Below, piece after piece: positions 46,764 through 58,843 of a DNA stretch of 64,000 nucleotides (position 1 is the stretch's first letter; each line of letters starts with the position of its first letter). Below the pieces are notes generated by a model. The model did not search any database and had not been told where the DNA came from. It worked only from the letters and a program-made list of their open reading frames with translations. This DNA comes from Sphaerisporangium krabiense. GTDB taxonomy: Bacteria > Actinomycetota > Actinomycetes > Streptosporangiales > Streptosporangiaceae. The stretch covers positions 806,001-870,000 of the forward strand of contig NZ_JACHBR010000001.1 in assembly GCF_014200435.1 (NCBI RefSeq), given 5' to 3'. The position numbers and the translations under genes were made by a program.

Positions 46764-46994
46764 TCGTGTGCCGGGCCAGAGCGGCCGGTCTTCAATTACC
46801 CTCAATTCCCGCCTGGGAAATGGATAATTCCTCCCGGCCGGGCGCTCCCGTAGAACGGAACGATCAAAAATTGGAATCGGAGGACCGAAAACGAAGGGTG
46901 AGACCTATGTCACTCACCCGCGAATATCATTCGACACCCCCAGGTCGACTAATGCATTTGACTCTGTGTAAATAACCGGTCACGCCGTCGTCCC

Positions 46995-47024
46995 TTGAAT
47001 CGTTTGATCACATCGTGCTAGCAA
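46995..47024 (+). promoter_or_regulatory. Possible promoter of egtD cluster
   Basis: TTGAAT (46995-47000) and TAGCAA (47019-47024) with an 18-nt spacer give a plausible promoter, leaving a leader of about 140 nt before the egtD ATG. Sequence-based guess only. Confidence 0.3.
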
Positions 47025-47173
47025 TGGAAGCCGCGCCAATGCGCGTCCCGCTCCGGCACCGGCACCGCGAGCTCGATTCGACTAATTCGTCCGGCTCACC
47101 GCGCAGATTCCGATTCGACTCCTGTTCACCTTCGCCATGGCGTCGTGTTCCAGCCCAGTCGTCAAGGAGCGTT

Positions 47174-48118
47174 ATGCACGTCTATCTGCAGGACAATGAT
47201 CTCCACGAGGCACTTCGCAGGGATGTCGCGCTCGGGCTGACCTCCGAGCCCAAGACCCTGCCGCCCAAATGGTTCTACGACGAGCGCGGCAGCGAGTTGT
47301 TCGACGAGATCACCCGGCTTGACGAGTACTACCCGACCCGGTGCGAGCGCGAGATCCTCATCGAGCGGGCCGACAACATCGCCCGGGTGACCCAGGCGCG
47401 GACGCTGGTCGAGCTCGGTGCGGGCTCCTGCGAGAAGACCCGGCTCCTGCTCGGCGCCCTGCGACTGGAGCGCTACGTTCCCGTGGACGTGAGCGGCGAC
47501 TATCTGGGCGAGGCCGCGGCGACGATCGCCGCGGAGCACCCGGAGGTGGCCGTTCACCCGGTCGTCGCCGACTACGAACGTCACCTGGAGTTGTTACCCC
47601 GCGGCCCGCGCAAGGTCGTCGCGTTCCTCGGCAGCACGATCGGCAACATGTTCCCGTCCGAGCGGCACCGGTTCCTGGCCGACGTCAGGAAGATCCTGGA
47701 CTCGGGTGACTTCCTGCTGCTCGGCGCCGACCTCGTCAAGGACCAGGACCGGCTCGTGCGTGCCTACGACGACGCGCTGGGCGTGACGGCCGAGTTCAAC
47801 CGCAACGTGCTCCGGGTCATCAACCAGCGGCTCGACGCCGACTTCGTGCCCGAGGCGTTCGCGCACGTGGCTCTCTGGGACCCGGCCAACGAGTGGATCG
47901 AGATGCGTCTGCGCTCGCTGGCCAAGCAGGACGTGCGCATCGACCGCCTGGGCATCACGGTTCATTTCACCGACGGCGAGGAGGTTCGTACGGAGATCTC
48001 CACCAAGTTCCGCAGGACATGCCTGGAGGAGGGACTGGCCACGGCGGGCTTCACGCTCCGCGAGTTCTGGACCGACCCGCGCAGTGACTTCTCCCTCGTC
48101 CTGGCGCAGCCCAACTGA
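47174..48118 (+). CDS. egtD: L-histidine N-alpha-methyltransferase (EgtD)
   Basis: A 314-residue SAM-dependent enzyme that trimethylates the alpha-amino group of histidine to hercynine, the first step to ergothioneine. SAM motif ELGAGS is at 80-85. Four histidine-binding residues of M. smegmatis EgtD (Asn166, Tyr206, Glu282, Ser284) have counterparts at Asn158, Tyr198, Glu274 and Ser276, all with the same offset of 8, so histidine specificity is probable. AAGGAG lies 4 nt before the ATG. The usual partners egtA, egtB, egtC and egtE are absent; instead a methyltransferase and a sulfotransferase-like gene follow. Confidence 0.9.
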   Translation: MHVYLQDNDLHEALRRDVALGLTSEPKTLPPKWFYDERGSELFDEITRLDEYYPTRCEREILIERADNIARVTQARTLVELGAGSCEKTRLLLGALRLERYVPVDVSGDYLGEAAATIAAEHPEVAVHPVVADYERHLELLPRGPRKVVAFLGSTIGNMFPSERHRFLADVRKILDSGDFLLLGADLVKDQDRLVRAYDDALGVTAEFNRNVLRVINQRLDADFVPEAFAHVALWDPANEWIEMRLRSLAKQDVRIDRLGITVHFTDGEEVRTEISTKFRRTCLEEGLATAGFTLREFWTDPRSDFSLVLAQPN

Positions 48119-48206
48119 GCCCGGGTGGTCGTCAGACACCTCGATCCGTCACGCCCCGGCTCATTCGGCACGCCCCCGTCCCTGGACCACCCCCGGAGGT
48201 TGGCAG

Positions 48207-49085
48207 ATGACCCGATCGTCGCAGAGCGAGATCACCCGTCGCAGCAACGACTACTACCGTGCGGGCGCGCTGGACCACGAGCGATGGGCGAAGATCGCCG
48301 AGTTACCCGACTACGACAGGGTCATCGCCGGCTTCGACTGGGCGAAGGTCCTCGACGCGCATCGCGGAAAAGCCTCCGCCGCCATTCTCGACTGCGGGTG
48401 CGGAATCGGATACTTCCCGCGCCGACTCCACGAGAAGGTCTCCTTCCCACCACACGTGGTATTCGACTACGACACCCTGGACCCGTCGTCCTATTCGCTC
48501 ACCGAGCATCGGAAGAATCTGCCGCCCCCCTTCAGGGCGAGACACTCGCTCAACAGCGGTATCGAGGACTTCCGGCCGGAGTCGTGGCTCGGCGCCTACG
48601 AGATCATCTGGTGTATGCATTCCCTCTACACCGTGCCGCGTGAACGCCTGCGCGAAGTGCTGAGCACGCTGGCGTCGCTGCTCACCCCCGACGGCACGTG
48701 TTTCATTTATCTGCCGAAGAAGCGGTCGGCCTACATGGCCCTGTTCGACCTCTACCTGGAGGAAACGGGTCACGAGCGGATCCAGCCCTACCTGACCGCG
48801 GAGGAGGTTCTGTCGGAGCTGACGGGACCGACCCCCTTCACGGTGGCGACCGTCGACTGCGATTTCGACCACTGGATCGACGCGGCCGAGCCGCAGACGC
48901 TCGCCACCTATCTGAACCAGATCTCCCTGCGCCCGGTCCGGCTCACCTTCGACGAGTGGCGACGGCACGCCGCCTTCGCGCCCTACCTCGACGAGGCGTT
49001 CGACCCCGCACGGTCGGCGTGGCGCTTCCGGCAGGAGATGAGCCTGATCTCGTTCTCTCGAACGACGGCGAGGGAGGTCCGATGA
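48207..49085 (+). CDS. SAM-dependent methyltransferase of unknown substrate
   Basis: A 292-residue class I methyltransferase. Motif I reads ILDCGCGIGYF (60-70), and a later IIWCMHSLYTVP with LLTPDGTCFIYLP fits motifs III-IV. The family resembles EgtD-like or small-molecule methyltransferases, but I cannot name the substrate. GGAGG at 48195-48199 precedes the ATG at 48207. It lies 88 nt after egtD and overlaps the sulfotransferase-like gene by 4 nt (ATGA). Context suggests action on a histidine-derived product. Confidence 0.8.
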   Translation: MTRSSQSEITRRSNDYYRAGALDHERWAKIAELPDYDRVIAGFDWAKVLDAHRGKASAAILDCGCGIGYFPRRLHEKVSFPPHVVFDYDTLDPSSYSLTEHRKNLPPPFRARHSLNSGIEDFRPESWLGAYEIIWCMHSLYTVPRERLREVLSTLASLLTPDGTCFIYLPKKRSAYMALFDLYLEETGHERIQPYLTAEEVLSELTGPTPFTVATVDCDFDHWIDAAEPQTLATYLNQISLRPVRLTFDEWRRHAAFAPYLDEAFDPARSAWRFRQEMSLISFSRTTAREVR

Positions 49086-49807
49086 AGAAGATCGCCTTGT
49101 GGGCCATCCCCAGGGCCGTGGGCACGGCCTTCGAGCGTGTCTTCCTGGAGAGGGACGACACCACCGTCGCACACGAGATCTTCATGCCCGCGCACTACTA
49201 CAGCAGCCACCGGGCCAGCCCACGGTACGACGGGACCGTCGCGCCGAAGCCGGAGTACGAGTACGAGCACATCAAGCGGAGCATCGGGCGGATGACCGGC
49301 CGGCCCATCCTCTTCCTGAAGGAGATCGCCTTCCACATGCGGGGCGTCTTCGAGGCGGACTTCTGGGCGGACTTCACCCACACCTTCATCATCCGCGACC
49401 CCCGGGTCTCGATACCGTCCCTCTACAAGCTCATGCCCGACGCCACTTCCGAAGAGACCGGCTTCGCGTGCGTCAAGGACATCTTCGACCTGGTGCGGGA
49501 CAAGTATGGGACGACCCCGATCGTGGTCAACGGCGATACCTTCCGGCGTCACCCGAAGGAGACCCTCGAGTCCTACTGCCGCCTTGCGGGAATCCCCTTC
49601 CAGGACACGACCACGTGGCGGACCGGGAAGGTGATTCCCGAGTGGAAACAGTGGGAGGAATGGCACGCCGAGGCGCTGAAGAGCTCCGGCATATTCAAAC
49701 CGCCGCCCGAACCGCGCTCCGTCGACCTGCCCGCTCATGTGGAGAAGATGATAGCGGACGCACTGCCACACTATGCGGAGATGAACCGTTATTCGATCAC
49801 CGTCTGA
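49082..49807 (+). CDS. Sulfotransferase-family P-loop protein
   Basis: A 241-residue protein of the sulfotransferase superfamily. The PAPS-binding loop reads LWAIPRAVGTAFERVF (6-21), in place of the usual TPRSGST; the 3'-phosphate-binding segment FIIRDPRVSIPSLY (102-115) carries Arg105 and Ser110/113. It would transfer sulfate from PAPS to a hydroxyl or amine of the cluster product. Variant members of this group do other P-loop chemistry, so the activity is not certain. The ATG overlaps the methyltransferase stop (ATGA). Its 3' end overlaps the convergent MFS gene by 19 nt. Confidence 0.78.
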   Translation: MKKIALWAIPRAVGTAFERVFLERDDTTVAHEIFMPAHYYSSHRASPRYDGTVAPKPEYEYEHIKRSIGRMTGRPILFLKEIAFHMRGVFEADFWADFTHTFIIRDPRVSIPSLYKLMPDATSEETGFACVKDIFDLVRDKYGTTPIVVNGDTFRRHPKETLESYCRLAGIPFQDTTTWRTGKVIPEWKQWEEWHAEALKSSGIFKPPPEPRSVDLPAHVEKMIADALPHYAEMNRYSITV

Positions 49808-51048
49808 TCGGCCCCGCTCCCACTCACTCCCCGATACGAGCGGGCGACCCTGAAGGTGAGTCCGGCGGTGACCGCGATGATGCCGCCCAGAACCATGAGC
49901 AGTGCGATCGAGCGGTCGGCGATGACACCGCCCAGCATGGCGGCGGCGATGTTCGAGAGAAAGAACATCGACGCGATGACGCCCATCAGCCTGCCCTGCT
50001 CGACGTACGCGTACGCATCGGACAGCCACGCGTTGGAGCTGCTGTTGAATATGGCCAGCGAGACACCGAACACCACGAAGACCGGATAAAGGGCAAGCAG
50101 CCGGTCCGGGACCACGAAGAGCGCGATGCTGAAACCGAGCATCAGCATGCTGCAGAAGTACAACTGCCCCGTGTTCCACCTGCGCAGGATCGGCCGCATG
50201 CCGACCACGCTCAGGGTGATCATCGTGGCGGTCGCGACAATGGTCGCATAGCCGATCTGCTCGGGCGTCGCATTCCACTTCTCCACCATCAGCGCCGGAA
50301 AGAACTCGTGATAGATGTTTATCGTGAACGTGATGAAGAACTGGATGGCGAGGGCCACCACCAGGCCGGGAGCCCTCCAGATCGACACCGAACCCCGCCG
50401 AGGGGTCTCCTCGACCCGGAACCGGGTCTCTGGCATGGAGGCCCTGCACGCGACGGCGGCCAGCACGCACAGGCCCGCCGCGAGGAAGAACGGCGTGGCG
50501 AAGTGCAGGTGTGACAGGAATCCGCCGAGCAGCGGCCCCGTCAGGTAGCCCGCGTAGCCGGCCGAACTCAGGTAGCCGAAGGCCACCGCTTTACCGGCCC
50601 CGAGATCAAGGTCGGCCACCACCGCCCTCGCCACACTGATATTGCCTTCGCAGACACCTGTGAGAAATCGCGCGAGGAACAGCAACCCGTAGTTCTCGGC
50701 GAGGATCGCGTATCCGGCGAGCGCGTTGGTGAACACGCCCACGATCAGGGTGGAGAGGATGACCTTTCTTCGTCCCACACGATCGGACAACTGCCCGAGA
50801 TAGAAGCTCCCGATGAGCGTTCCCAACGGATAAACGGCCACGAGCAGGGCGAAGAGCATGGTCGGACTCAGCACGCCGGACCGCGCGATCGCCGAATCCG
50901 TCCCCAGGAACAAAGGGGCGAACACCGGATAGGGCATCGCCGTGCCCACGTACCCGAGCAGGGTCACGACAATGACCGACCAGAGCGCAGGGGTCATCGT
51001 TTTCTCAGCGGATCGTTCTTTGCTGACCTTTCGCCGCAAATAACGCAT
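49789..51048 (-). CDS. MFS transporter, drug/metabolite efflux type
   Basis: A 419-residue major facilitator with 12 predicted helices. The loop 2-3 motif GQLSDRVGRRKVIL and the acidic/Arg pattern of TetA-like exporters are seen. Its stop lies within the 3' end of the sulfotransferase-like gene, so the two genes are convergent and overlap by 19 nt. It is the natural exporter candidate for the product of the egtD cluster, although a separate promoter is needed. Confidence 0.88.
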   Translation of the reverse strand: MRYLRRKVSKERSAEKTMTPALWSVIVVTLLGYVGTAMPYPVFAPLFLGTDSAIARSGVLSPTMLFALLVAVYPLGTLIGSFYLGQLSDRVGRRKVILSTLIVGVFTNALAGYAILAENYGLLFLARFLTGVCEGNISVARAVVADLDLGAGKAVAFGYLSSAGYAGYLTGPLLGGFLSHLHFATPFFLAAGLCVLAAVACRASMPETRFRVEETPRRGSVSIWRAPGLVVALAIQFFITFTINIYHEFFPALMVEKWNATPEQIGYATIVATATMITLSVVGMRPILRRWNTGQLYFCSMLMLGFSIALFVVPDRLLALYPVFVVFGVSLAIFNSSSNAWLSDAYAYVEQGRLMGVIASMFFLSNIAAAMLGGVIADRSIALLMVLGGIIAVTAGLTFRVARSYRGVSGSGADQTVIE

Positions 51049-51204
51049 CGACTGATGTTATCAGCTCTTGTCGGAACATCCACCGCACCGGACAGGAGGG
51101 TGATGGCGCCTGGTCAACGAGAACGTGTCTTCCACATGAAAACCGCTATGCCCATTCCCAAATAATCCATGCGTGTCTGTTCACATGACATAAATGGCTT
51201 ATTG

Positions 51205-53048: not shown

Positions 53049-53301
53049 CCGGACCACCTCCCAGGGTCGAGTGAAGACCTTGTCACCGTGTCAAGGTCAA
53101 GCGGAACCTGAGACGGGCGGCGTCACTTCTCCGGTGAGCCGATCGGGGACAGGCCGAGCGCTTTGTCGGATTACTCCAAAAATGTGAGCATTGTCAGTGT
53201 TTGCTGCTCGTTCGCCTTTGCTCCATGCGTGCGAAGCAAACCGTTTCGCCTGCTGTGGTTTTTGTGATCGGCACACCAGAACCATCCGAAACGGTAGAAA
53301 C

Positions 53302-56300
53302 ATGACGCGCAGCAGCGCACCACGAACACCTGCCTGGCCCGGTGCGATCACCGCGATCGCACTCGCGGCCGGCGCACTCGTCGTCGCGCCGGCTTCACCG
53401 GCCGCGGCGGCCGCCGTGGAACGGCCGGTCTACCTCGGCAAATCCCTGTACACCGGCGAGTTCCACGCGCACACGGGGATGAGCGACGGAGCCGAGAACC
53501 CGAACGCGGCGTTCGACCACGTACGCGATGAGACGGACGCGGACTTCTTCGCCCTCACCGAGCATGACGTGATGTGGGACGTCCGCAATGGCGACGACTT
53601 CATCAAGGACTGGCGGGACGCCGACTCCGACGAGTGGCGTGCCCTGCACGAGCAGGCGGGCGAGTTCAACGCGTCCCAGAAAGACCTCACCGTGGTCCCC
53701 GCGGTCGAGAACACCTGGTACGACGGCACCGGCCACATCAACCTGTTCAACACCAGCTGGCACGCGACGGCCCGGGGTACGGAGAAGGGCACCGTCGACG
53801 GGTACGCCAACGGCTTCGGCATCGGCGACATGAAGTACGACTACTTCACCTACCTCGCCCGCCTCAAGCAGGACCCGGACGCGATCGGCCAGTTCAACCA
53901 CCCGTCGCCCACGGGCAAGGGCGAGTTCTTCGGCTTCAAGGGCCTGGACAGGACCGTCGACGACCGCATGGAGTTGATCGAGGTCAAGTCCGCCGACCAG
54001 GTCAAGGAGTTCCAGAAGGCGCTGGACGCCGGCTGGCACCTGGCCCCGGTCTGGAACGGCGACGAGCACTCCGCGACCTGGGTTTCGGGCAACCCGTCGA
54101 TCACCGGCGTCTGGGCCACGGGCAAGAGCCTGGACGACCTCTACGCGGCGATGCACGACCGCAGCACGTACTCCTCGGGCGACGTCAACGCCGTCCTCGG
54201 CTTCGGCGGCGACGCCAAACCGATGGGCTCGATCCTGCCCGCCGGAACCACCACCCTGGACGCCGAGGTCCTGCTGAAGGACCCCGACGCCAAGGACTCC
54301 TTCACGGGCGCGCAGCTGATCACCAACGGCGGGAAGGTCGCCTACGACTTCGGCAGGCTCGGCGGCGACGACCTGACGCTGAAGAGGAAGCTGGAGGTCA
54401 AGGACGGCGACTTCTACTACGTCCGCGCCGACCAGGCCGACGGCGACCTCCTCATCTCCGCCCCGATCTGGATCGGCGAGACGACGAGCGGCGCGAACTA
54501 CGCCCCGCAGATCACCGTCGCCGACGTGCCCGCCACCGCCCGGTACGGCCAGACGGTCGCGCTGCCGAAGGTGAGCGCCACCGACGACTCCGGCAAGCAG
54601 CCCACCATCGCCTTCGAGGTGTGGGACTCCGCAGGCCAGGTCCCGGTCAAGGACGGCGCCTTCCAGATCCGCTCCTACGACGACACGTTCGTCGTCGTGA
54701 AGGCGACCGACGACAAGGCCAACACCAACGCCGAGCTGCGCCGGATCCAGATCGACCAGAAGACGCAGGACCCGGCGGGCGTGTTCCGCTTCACCAACAA
54801 CGCGGCCGTGGGCGTCGAGCCCGGTACGGCGGGCATCGCCGTCACGAGCGACCGGGACGTCCGGCACGTCTACGCGCAGGTCCTGCCGGAGGGCCAGGCC
54901 GACTGGTCCAAGGCCCAGGTCCTCACCTCGACCGGCGACAGCCCGTACGAGACGGAGACCGTCGGCAACGACGAGCCGGTGTTCCAGCACTCCATCACGG
55001 GCCAGACGCTGCGCTCCCACGAGTTCCGGCTCACCGGCCTGAAGGTCGGCACGACCTACCGGTACCGTCTCGGCGTCACCCGGGACGGCGCCGCCCCCAA
55101 GGCCGCCGACACGGCCGCCTGGACGGACGTCAAGGGCCGATTCCGCGCGGGCGGGTCCGACGGCGAGCCCGTCTACCTCCTCGGCGACGTCCAGGTCCCC
55201 GACGGCAGCCGACAGCCTCAAGCTGCCGGGCAAGGTCCTCGACCAGCTGAAGTCCAAGGCGCCCGGCGGCGGCACCGTCGTCCAGCTCGGCGACCTCGTC
55301 GAGAACGGCGGCCGCACCAAGATGTGGGACGAGATCGACGACTCGTTCCTGTCCGGCCTCGACACGCAGTACGCGGGCGTCAAAGGCAACCACGAGACCT
55401 ACGAGGACCCCGACTACAACTCGGTCGCCGGCGAGCCCGCCTCGGTCTTCACCAACATGTTCGCGCTGCCCAAGAACGGCGCCGTGGGCGAGGCCAACTA
55501 CTCGTTCGACCGCGGGCAGGTCCACTTCTCCGTCCTCAGCTCCACCGCGCGTCTCGACGACCAGCTCTCCTGGCTGGTGAAGGACGTCCGGGCCTCGGAC
55601 AAGAAGTGGAACGTCGTCCTCGGGCACTACTCCTACTACGGCGGCCGCCACGGGGCCGACGCGGGCATGGACATCGACCGCGAGAAGGTCACGCGCGTGC
55701 TCGACCAGCTCGGCGTCGACCTCTACATCGGCGGCCACGACCACGTCTACAAGCGCTCGACGATCTACGACGGCCGGCTGGCCAGGACGCCGGAGGAAAC
55801 GGCCGAGGGCACCACGTTCGTGACGATGGGCTCGGCCGGCCCCAAGTTCTACGACAACGCGAAGTACTGGTGGGACGACAAGGTCGACGACGAGGACGTC
55901 CAGATGGGCGGTGTCCTGACGGTCACCGACGCGGGCCTGCGACTGACGGCGTACAAGATCGACGGCCGTCCGGTCGACGACTTCACCGTCACCAAGCCGC
56001 AGGGCACCTGGAAGGTCTCCTCCGCCGAGATCAGGAACCGTGAGCTGGACGGCGTCGGGCTCCTCTCGTCCCCGGGCAGCCTCGACAAGCTGACCGTCAC
56101 GGCCGCGACGTACGACGCCTCGCAGCAGAAGATGATCGACGTGCGCTCGGCCGACGTCACGCTCGACCACCGCGGCCGTGAGCAGTACGTCCGTTTCGGC
56201 GAGCCGCTCGCGGTCGCGCCGAGCTCGACCGTCAAGCTGTTCGTCTGGGACTCGCTGAAGTCCGGCAAGCCGCTGCGGCCCGCCGTGACCCTGCGCGAGG

Positions 56301-58843
56301 GCCTGGCCGGTGACGGCACCGCACAGACCCCGTACCTGATCGACTCCGCCGACGACCTGGCGAAGATCGACAACGACCCGGCCGGACACTACAAGCTGGC
56401 CGGCGACCTCAACCTGAGCGGCCTCGGCCGTTCCCAGATCGGCCGCGCGATCGCCTTCACCGGTGTGCTCGACGGCGCCGGGCACACCATCTCGGGCCTG
56501 TCCGCGCTCTCCGGCCAAGGCCCCGGCCTGTTCGCCGACAACCACGGCACGATCGAGAACCTGGTCGTCAACGGCGACGTCACCACCGACCGCACCCCGG
56601 CCGGTCTCGTCGCCGACATCAACCACGGCACGATCGAGCGGGTCCGCGCCGACGGGTCGCTGACCGCCGCGAGCTATGCCGGCGGCATCACCGGCCACCA
56701 GTTCGGCATCGTCCGCGACAGCGTCTCGACGGTGAACGTCAAGGCCACGACCCAGTACGTCGGCGGCGTCGTCGGCGTCGCGATGGGCGGCTCGGTCACC
56801 CAGAACGTGCTGGCCACCGGCTCGGTCACCTCGGCCGGGGCGTCGGCGGGCGGCATCGCGGCCTACGGGTACGACGCGACCGAGGTCAGCCACTCGGTCG
56901 CGCTGAACTCGAGCATCTCCGGCACCGGCTACGCGCACGCCATCGTCGGCCGCGTGCTCGCCGGTCAGACGGCCACGCTGGAGGACAACCACGTCAGCCG
57001 GGCCGTGCCGATCAGCGGGCAGACGCTGACGGACCCGCCCGCGGCCGGCAACCAGAGAGGCAACGTCGTCTCCCCCACGGAGATCCAGAAGCGGTCCTTC
57101 TACGAGGCGCGAGGCTGGGACTTCACCGACGTCTGGCAGTGGAGCGAGACCGGCGCGCGGCCGACCCTGAAGGTGGCGCCCGAGCCCCTGCAGGCCGGTG
57201 CGACGCCTCAGCTGCCGAAGGACGACCGGGGCTTCTACGTCATCAAGAGCGCCGACGACCTCACGCAGATCGGTACGCACCTCTCGTATGACTATGTGCT
57301 CGGCGCCGACCTCGACCTGAGCGGCAGGCCGTTCACCACCCTGCCGGGCGCGTTCACCGGTGAGCTGGACGGCGCGGGCCACACGATCAAGGGCCTGACC
57401 TCCGCCGGCGGCCTGTTCACGCAGGTGTCCGGGAACGTCCACGACCTCGCGATCACCGACGCCAAGGTGACCGCCGCCACCGCGCGCGCGGGCATCCTCG
57501 CGGGCGCGAGCACCGGCACCGTCGAGCGCGTGTGGGTCTCCGGCTCGGTGACCGCGGCCTCCCGGGCCGGCGGCCTGCTCGGCGACTCCCAGGGCGTCGT
57601 CCGTGACGTCTACTCCACGGCGGACGTGCGCGCGCTGTCCACCGAGGCGGGCGGAGTCATCGGCGTCGCGCTGGCGGGATCGCTCACCGAGCGCGTCTTC
57701 GCCACGGGCGCCGTCCGCGCGGACACCCGCAACGTCGGCGGCGTGGCCGGGTACGGCTACACCGGCACCACGATCCGTAACTCGATCGCGCTCAACCCGA
57801 CGGTCACCGCGCCGTCCTGGGCGCACCGCTTCCTCGGCCGGGTGCTGGCCGGCAACGTCGCCACGCTCGAGGGGAACTGGGCGGTCGAGACCGTCGAGGC
57901 CACCACACAGCAGGAGACCACGATCGGCCCGGCGACGCTCAACGGCGCCACCGTGGCCAAGGCCGAGGCCCGCGGCCAGGACTTCTGGACCGGCAAGCTC
58001 GGCTTCGACCTCACCACGGTCTGGAAGTGGGACGAGGACGGCAAGCGGCCCGTGCTGCGCGCCGTGCCCGAGGACGTCCCGGCCGTCTCCGACCCCGCGC
58101 CCACGGGCCCGCCTCTGGCGACACCCGCCGCGGCGACGGTGGCGGAATCCGCGGCCGCGGGAAAGAGCGGTGACGAGGAAGGGGCGGCGCGGACCACCGC
58201 GTTCACCACCGCGGCCCCGGCGGCGGCCGAGGTCGCCCAGACCGGCGGCATCCACCATGAGGCGGTCAAGAACGACGACGGCACCGTCACCGTGACGGTG
58301 TCCGCGGGGGCCGCCGCGGCGGCCGGGCAACTGTCGTTCCTCCTGCTGAAGCCCGGCGCCGCGCCGTCGGCCCCGGCCGAGGACGACATCGCCTACCTCG
58401 GCGAGGTCCGCCTCGATGATCAGGGCAACGCGACGCTGACCGTGCTCCTGGACCAGCCGGACGGCACGATGCTCGCGCTCAACACCTCCGGCGACACCGA
58501 GCGCCACGTCGCCCCGCTCCTCCCGCGCACGCCCGAGACCACGGCGATGAGGGTGCTCCACGACACCGTCACCGCCACGGTCAAGCCCCAGGGGAACGCC
58601 CCCGCGCAGGCGACGATCACCCTGGTCTGCACGGGTGCGGACAAGTGCCAGGAGGAGGTCGCCGTCTCCCACGACGGCCGCCCTGTCGACGCCAAGAAGG
58701 TCACGCTCCAGCCCGGCAAGACCCGGGACCTGAAGCTCAACCTCCGCGACGAGGCCCGCGCCGCCCTCCTCGCCGGCAGGTCGATCATCCTGGAGGTCCG
58801 GATCGGCACGGCCCCGGCGGTCCAGGTGACGGTCACTCCGTGA
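53302..58843 (+). pseudogene. Secreted PHP / metallophosphoesterase / GLUG-repeat protein, one frameshift
   Basis: A gene of about 1846 codons split by a single frameshift at 55197-55200. Up to that site: Sec signal peptide (about 1-37), a PHP phosphoesterase domain (FHAHTGMSDG at 54-63, TEHD at 86-89) and Ig/fibronectin-like domains. After it, in the next frame: calcineurin-type metallophosphoesterase (GDVQ, GDLVENG, GNHE, GGHDHVYKR), GLUG-like repeats (GLFADNHGTIENLVVNG and others) in two blocks, and a C-terminal Ig-like domain. The second part can be read from an ATG at 55322. Intact, it would be a cell-surface or extracellular nuclease or phosphatase. The shift may be a real mutation or a sequence error. 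Confidence 0.8.
55197..55200 (+). other. Frameshift in a run of four C
   Basis: Removing one C from CCCC at 55197-55200 joins the two halves of the large secreted protein, giving GDVQVPTAADSLKLPGK across the junction. In the present sequence the first frame runs on out of phase to 56043. Domain content shows that metallophosphoesterase motif I (GDVQ) is in the first frame and the rest in the second. Confidence 0.8.

What the first reader, a model, noticed from the sequence alone, without database searches (positions are those of the whole stretch)
47174..51048. Orphan egtD with methyltransferase, sulfotransferase and MFS exporter: possible new small-molecule cluster
EgtD keeps all four histidine-contacting residues (Asn158, Tyr198, Glu274, Ser276; constant offset of 8 from the M. 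smegmatis enzyme), so it should make hercynine. None of egtA, egtB, egtC or egtE is nearby. Instead there is a second SAM methyltransferase coupled (ATGA overlap) to a PAPS-type sulfotransferase, and a convergent exporter. This predicts a sulfated, further methylated histidine betaine rather than ergothioneine.
Basis: partly seen in the sequence, partly recalled or inferred. Interest (0 to 1): 0.78.

Follow-up and report, generated by a model that had tools for sequence, protein, structure and literature searches.

The report
Rare hercynine-type gene cassette, product unknown
Four neighbouring genes in an actinomycete look like a small self-contained pathway that borrows the first enzyme of ergothioneine synthesis to make a different, still unknown exported compound.

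Summary
A true EgtD (47174-48118) is followed by a methyltransferase (MT), a Sulfotransfer_5 protein (ST) and a convergent MFS transporter, with no egtA, egtB or egtC match in the window. The genome carries a separate egtABCD set, so this egtD is a second copy. It groups not with the host's operon EgtD (58%) but with operon EgtDs of other genera. The same four genes plus about 365 bp upstream occur in Sphaerisporangium melleum at an unrelated place, with sharp edges and purifying selection; the window copy has low GC: a discrete, apparently mobile cassette. It was found in 2 of 11 congeners and not elsewhere in the searches made. The hercynine step is well supported by the pocket residues. Best reading: a hercynine-committed specialised-metabolite cassette whose later steps are unknown.

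The parts
46808..47173 (+). Upstream leader of the cassette, low GC (57%), shared with S. melleum; probable promoter and ribosome-binding region
   Evidence: blastn block edge; alignment with L036; GC. The consensus scan found no sigma-70 site here
47174..48118 (+). egtD, second copy: L-histidine N-alpha-methyltransferase, expected to make hercynine
   Evidence: TIGR03438 373.8 bits; match to solved EgtD E 1e-95; pocket residues conserved
48207..49085 (+). Class I SAM-dependent methyltransferase (292 aa), perhaps an N-methyltransferase, substrate unknown
   Evidence: Methyltransf_23 37.1 bits (cut-off 27) and Methyltransf_PK 27.2 (cut-off 27); 89% identical in S. melleum
49082..49807 (+). Sulfotransfer_5 family protein (241 aa); 5'-phosphosulfate loop altered (A12, G14), 3'-phosphate contacts R105 and S113 kept
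   Evidence: PF19798 47 bits, cut-off 23.2; family profile matches CurM sulfotransferase 4gbm E 5e-8; residue counts
49789..51048 (-). MFS transporter (419 aa), convergent with a 19-bp overlap; probable exporter
   Evidence: PF07690 116.7 bits; best NCBIfam match is a Tet efflux family, 83.9 bits, far below its cut-off of 475

Best explanation
A discrete, apparently horizontally moving specialised-metabolite cassette. Shown by sequence: its first enzyme is a bona fide EgtD that has the residues of the histidine pocket, is a second copy beside a complete egtABCD set, and groups with operon EgtDs of other genera. Inferred: this EgtD converts histidine to hercynine as a dedicated supply; the methyltransferase and the sulfotransferase-fold enzyme then modify hercynine, or join it to or act on another cell metabolite; the MFS protein exports the product. 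The identity of the product is not predicted with confidence.
For: Own egtA, B, C and D are adjacent on contig C4; S. melleum has egtA, B, C and D together on C18 besides its cassette. Cassette DNA is shared over window 46808-51063, nothing outside, and the window's right-flank gene has no match in S. melleum at E 1e-40. dN/dS is 0.12, 0.20, 0.24, 0.20 for egtD, MT, ST, MFS, dS 0.23-0.31, lower than for the egt genes of the same two genomes (dS 0.36-0.63). Cassette GC is 64.1% against 71.8%; none of 239 equal-sized windows is lower. In the genomes searched, close relatives of the three companions were seen only with the cassette: ST 87% in S. melleum, next best 37% (149 genomes); MFS 2 of 250 at E 1e-50; MT one locus, S. 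melleum, in genome contigs. The tree puts the cassette pair in a 31-row clade of operon EgtDs (98/99) and the host operon EgtD in another; 28 of 28 nearest non-cassette EgtD loci fetched lie in egt loci.
Against: Only two species, both in one genus. No expression or metabolite data. Functions of MT, ST and MFS rest on weak or general family matches. ST's donor loop is altered. No empty insertion site could be shown. Lower dS could reflect composition or selection as well as transfer. The genome searches score only the best few candidates per genome and the genome-contig scan needs exact short peptides, so distant copies may be missed. EgtD-family proteins outside egt loci exist (36-39% identity, L096-L098), so an EgtD relative away from egtABC is not by itself unique.
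Confidence: 0.6

Rival explanations
1. One reading: hercynine is methylated again, for example on an imidazole nitrogen, then sulfonated by the PAPS enzyme and exported as a sulfated histidine betaine.
For: Gene content and order; weak kinship of the MT to N-methyltransferases; PAPS should be available, APS kinase match in 11 of 11 congeners, not specific; the ST family profile matches the CurM sulfotransferase and 4gox.
Against: No ordinary acceptor atom in hercynine; N-sulfoimidazoles and acyl sulfates are labile (recalled). ST loop lost an invariant Ser.
Confidence: 0.15
2. The sulfotransferase-fold protein no longer transfers sulfate from PAPS in the ordinary way (altered donor loop) and does another reaction; the product is a hercynine derivative without a sulfate.
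For: A12 and G14 in both cassettes where the 26 other aligned relatives have S, T, C or N at 12 and S at 14.
Against: R11, T15, K80, R105 and S113 are kept; purifying selection, dN/dS 0.24; one Ser contact may be dispensable.
Confidence: 0.25
3. The second egtD simply raises hercynine supply for ergothioneine, and the three neighbours are unrelated.
For: EgtD is canonical in sequence; second egt gene sets occur in the order.
Against: The four genes recur together with sharp edges at an unrelated place in S. melleum. The six EgtD loci of the three genomes in which both copies were traced (G597, G086, G009; 53-62% identity) all have egtA, B and C beside them, unlike this one.
Confidence: 0.1
4. 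The cassette EgtD has changed substrate and makes another betaine.
For: Longer stem branch of the cassette pair (0.36) than the end branches of the operon EgtDs in its clade.
Against: All ten pocket positions checked equal the common operon residue; of the five positions that differ from a 97%-conserved residue, none is among the ten.
Confidence: 0.05

Closest known systems
Ergothioneine biosynthetic operon egtABCDE
   Same: EgtD with the same family score and histidine pocket; EgtD groups with operon EgtDs
   Different: no egtA, egtB or egtC match in the window; MT, ST and MFS instead; host has a separate egtABCD set
Sulfotransfer_5 (PF19798) proteins, one seen beside peptide synthetase genes (L104), and CurM sulfotransferase (4gbm)
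   Same: Family membership, 3'-phosphate motif R105/S113, PR loop start
   Different: 37% identity or less to those found outside the cassettes, A12 and G14 in the 5' loop, different gene neighbours
Methyltransferase-dioxygenase (PhyH-type) gene pairs of other actinobacteria (L056, L057, L102, L103)
   Same: Homologues of the MT (31-35% over the matched part; 26% overall for two)
   Different: Paired with a dioxygenase gene; no egtD, ST or MFS match seen beside them

Membership tests
EgtD (TIGR03438) | Score above the curated equivalog cut-off | tested here: met
   373.8 bits against 290.9
EgtD (TIGR03438) | Residues of the histidine site (Tyr39, Tyr56, Asn166, Tyr206, Glu282, Ser284 in PMC8593015, passages seen) | tested here: met
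   Y35, Y52, N158, Y198, E274, S276 present; each identical in the 35 operon-type EgtDs compared
EgtD (TIGR03438) | Makes hercynine from histidine and SAM | not testable with these tools
   needs an enzyme assay
Ergothioneine operon | EgtA, EgtB and EgtC encoded beside egtD | tested here: not met
   no tblastn match in 64 kb; the set lies on another contig
Ergothioneine operon | EgtE encoded nearby | not tested
   no EgtE search made
PAPS-dependent sulfotransferase (Sulfotransfer_5) | Pfam family score | tested here: met
   47.0 bits against 23.2; 15 of 15 aligned family members scanned match PF19798
PAPS-dependent sulfotransferase (Sulfotransfer_5) | 3'-phosphate-binding Arg and Ser (role recalled) | tested here: met
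   R105 and S113, identical in the 26 other relatives
PAPS-dependent sulfotransferase (Sulfotransfer_5) | 5'-phosphosulfate loop PR-[S/T/N/C]-x-S-T (motif from the alignment; role recalled) | tested here: not met
   PR-A-V-G-T; position 14 is Ser in 26 of 26 other relatives
PAPS-dependent sulfotransferase (Sulfotransfer_5) | Sulfotransferase fold | tested here: inconclusive
   structure prediction from two sequences failed, mean pLDDT 33.7
Alpha-N-methyltransferase (PF05891) | Pfam family score | tested here: inconclusive
   27.2 bits against 27; two general methyltransferase models pass with a larger margin
MFS exporter | MFS_1 domain | tested here: met
   116.7 bits against 33.4; direction of transport not testable here

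The most novel reading that the evidence does not exclude
A bacterial pathway that takes hercynine, which I recall in bacteria mainly as the precursor of ergothioneine and selenoneine, as the committed building block of a different exported metabolite, finished by a methyltransferase and by a sulfotransferase-fold enzyme with a rebuilt donor loop.
Probability: 0.45. Interest if true: 0.65.

Novelty: new variant of a known kind. Interest (0 to 1): 0.5.

Why it matters
EgtD is commonly taken as a sign of ergothioneine synthesis (recalled). Here a bona fide EgtD sits in a separate compact cassette beside a full egtABCD set, so hercynine probably feeds a second, unknown product. With only four genes the pathway is small enough to rebuild in a laboratory host, which makes the question directly testable, and the altered sulfotransferase loop is a concrete enzymological puzzle.

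Tried and rejected
Structure prediction of the ST from a two-sequence alignment gave mean pLDDT 33.7: unusable, no fold search made.

An empty insertion site was sought by following the right-flank MerR/HEAT gene in the genus (match in 6 of 11 genomes, own included). In the five congeners the sequence on the cassette side is unlike the window (blastn), and it differs among the three whose genes were listed; no empty site was shown. No tRNA in the window or in the S. melleum stretches; I judged none of the repeats a convincing boundary repeat.

The tblastx part was discarded (sum statistics gave meaningless matches). The APS-kinase dS line compared wrong frames and was discarded. Two of the 28 fetched ST loci (L018, L020) gave no local alignment and are not in the residue counts.

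MT in 394 class genomes: 4 matches, own included, two at 33% and one weak (G249), which later gave no tblastn match in its region and was dropped. MT profile in 396 phylum genomes: 3 matches, own included. S. melleum is not among these matches, so I infer it was not in those two samples. Each of these searches scored only the best few candidates per genome. Plasmids: no MT match, five ST matches of 25.5-32.0%, one looked at, beside peptide synthetase genes.

Literature: EgtD + sulfotransferase + hercynine + gene cluster and hercynine + sulfotransferase gave 0 papers. For (25 of 7,277 listed; 20 of 32; 11 of 11; 8 of 8; 10 of 392) I saw titles and abstract beginnings only, and none of those told of such a cluster. 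Passages only were seen in PMC9103826 and PMC8593015.
Full report
What is there. The window holds four genes at 47174-51048: egtD (47174-48118, +), a class I methyltransferase MT (48207-49085, +), a Sulfotransfer_5 protein ST (49082-49807, +) and an MFS transporter (49789-51048, -). EgtD scores 373.8 bits against the NCBIfam EgtD equivalog (cut-off 290.9). MT passes the Pfam scores of Methyltransf_23 (37.1, cut-off 27), Methyltransf_25 (29.3, cut-off 27) and, barely, Methyltransf_PK, an alpha-N-methyltransferase family (27.2, cut-off 27). ST matches PF19798 (47, cut-off 23.2), the transporter MFS_1 (116.7, cut-off 33.4).

EgtD is genuine. It aligns over its length with solved EgtD structures (best E 1e-95). 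Positions Y35, F43, Y52, G153, N158, Y198, D199, M244, E274 and S276 were compared with 35 operon-type EgtDs: each is identical in all 35 except F43, which is F in 34. By the alignment they include the counterparts of Tyr39, Phe47, Tyr56, Asn166, Tyr206, Glu282 and Ser284, which PMC8593015 (M. tuberculosis EgtD; passages) names as contacts of histidine or of ligands in the histidine site.

It is a second copy. The genome has two EgtDs over the cut-off: this one and one on contig C4. On C4 egtA (371.5 bits, cut-off 370.8), egtB (414.5, cut-off 360), egtC (268, cut-off 218.65) and egtD (348.4, cut-off 290.9) are adjacent. No EgtA, EgtB or EgtC match lies in the window. EgtE was not searched.

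The block is real and separate. One congener, G001, has all four genes at 94, 90, 87 and 89% protein identity. Its contig has the same length, 61,190 bases, as the Sphaerisporangium melleum JCM 13064 record NZ_BMNT01000048.1, the only relative of the MT that a scan of genome contigs returned (48 pattern matches, 1 confirmed; the scan needs exact 7-residue peptides). I take G001 to be that strain and the window to be from the same genus. Blastn of the whole window against the 19 kb fetched from S. melleum finds similarity only at 46808-49060 (86.2%) and 49059-51063 (89.0%): the four genes and about 365 bp upstream. Gene order and the 19-bp convergent ST/MFS overlap are the same; the MT/ST ATGA overlap is not, S. 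melleum having 112 bp between them. S. melleum also has egtA, B, C and D together elsewhere.

Selection and origin. dN/dS between the two cassettes is 0.119 (egtD), 0.199 (MT), 0.237 (ST) and 0.200 (MFS), with dS 0.230-0.306 (own Nei-Gojobori script). For egtA, B, C and part of D of the two operons dS is 0.533, 0.489, 0.625 and 0.355, so the cassette is less diverged than the hosts' own egt genes, which suggests transfer but does not prove it. The block has 64.1% GC against 71.8% for the rest of the window, and none of 239 equal-sized windows, those overlapping the block included, is lower. In a 42-row tree the two cassette EgtDs form a pair (100/100) beside G026 (94/93, below the tool's star) within a 31-row clade of operon EgtDs (98/99); the own operon EgtD groups with a congener's (100/98) elsewhere; the bootstrap had not fully settled. 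Of the 30 best EgtD loci fetched from 345 genomes of the order (308 with a match), 2 are the cassettes; 27 of the other 28 show EgtB and EgtC within the fetched flanks, and the last, in G480, lies about 3.5 kb after egtA-egtB-egtC. So the cassette egtD was most likely recruited from an ergothioneine operon of another lineage.

Distribution. ST: 28 of 149 relatives have a match, own included, but apart from S. melleum (87%) none exceeds 37%; none of the 14 wider ST neighbourhoods read (L037-L050) has a match to egtD or MT. MFS: 2 of 250 family genomes at E 1e-50, the two cassette genomes. MT: 4 of 394 class genomes, own included, 3 of 396 phylum genomes, own included, with a profile; four clear relatives have a PhyH-type dioxygenase gene beside them instead, and the fifth, weak match was dropped. 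Within the genus the cassette is in 2 of 11 genomes. These searches score the best few candidates per genome, so counts of distant relatives are lower bounds.

Results against uniqueness. Second EgtDs are not rare: G597, G086 and G009 have two loci each, all six with egtA, B and C; G503 has one of 49% beside an EgtB-like gene of 34%; and three EgtD relatives of 36-39% traced (L096-L098) have no egtA, B or C beside them. The last show that EgtD-family enzymes do occur outside egt operons, though these are far more distant.

What the later steps could be. The MT's nearest solved relatives are weak: with the single sequence N-terminal Xaa-Pro-Lys N-methyltransferase 1 (E 0.0026), with a four-sequence profile an uncharacterised protein (E 0.0002) and aminosugar N-methyltransferases (E 0.0006-0.001) among others. 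An N-methyl transfer is thus plausible. A profile of the ST family matches the CurM sulfotransferase (E 5e-8) and 4gox (E 1.5e-5). In the cassette ST, R11, T15, K80, R105 and S113 are kept, but position 14, Ser in 26 of 26 other aligned relatives, is Gly in both cassettes, and position 12 is Ala where they have S, T, C or N. Position 14 belongs to the loop that holds the 5'-phosphosulfate of PAPS (recalled). PAPS itself should be available: an APS kinase match is found in 11 of 11 congeners, which is not specific. Hercynine has no hydroxyl and no free amine, so a plain sulfate on it would need an imidazole nitrogen or the carboxylate, both giving labile groups (recalled chemistry).

Mechanism proposed. 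Histidine to hercynine by the cassette EgtD (strongly inferred from sequence); modification by MT and ST in unknown order (inferred from co-inheritance); export by the MFS protein (inferred from family). Shown: the genes, their co-inheritance, selection, and separation from the egtABCD set. Not shown: any reaction or product.

Novelty. Enzyme families are known; the combination was not met in the paper searches made (listings only) nor in the genomes searched outside the genus. I file it as a new variant of a known kind, a small specialised-metabolite cassette built on EgtD.

Noticed in passing
window 53191-58843 (+): A long phosphatase-like gene is split by a frame change near 55190-55210 (seen by eye); the halves read on in different frames. 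Could be a sequencing error or a broken gene.
   Followed up: partly
left of window 51303; L123-L127: The MerR/HEAT gene pair on the right of the cassette is kept in five congeners, but what lies on its cassette side is unlike the window in all five: a variable junction.
   Followed up: partly
L033, L040 (own genome C1:4161436-4162029): A second Sulfotransfer_5 gene (34% identical) in the own genome with an ordinary loop, in a neighbourhood that by eye resembles those in congeners G006 and G008.
   Followed up: no
L056, L057, L102, L103: Rare methyltransferases related to the cassette MT sit beside a PhyH-type dioxygenase gene in four other actinobacterial genomes.
   Followed up: partly
L090-L093, L099, L100: Three genomes (G597, G086, G009) carry two sets of egtA, B, C and D at different places.
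   Followed up: partly
L096 7399-8307, L097 826-1830, L098 6921-7922: EgtD relatives of 36-39% identity without egtA, B or C beside them; in L097 and L098 each overlaps an upstream gene that by eye looks alike in both.
   Followed up: no
L095 4518-7629: In G480 three genes, by eye a two-component system and a binding protein, lie between egtC and egtD.
   Followed up: no
L049 3893-5552: A distant Sulfotransfer_5 gene overlaps a class IV aminotransferase gene.
   Followed up: no
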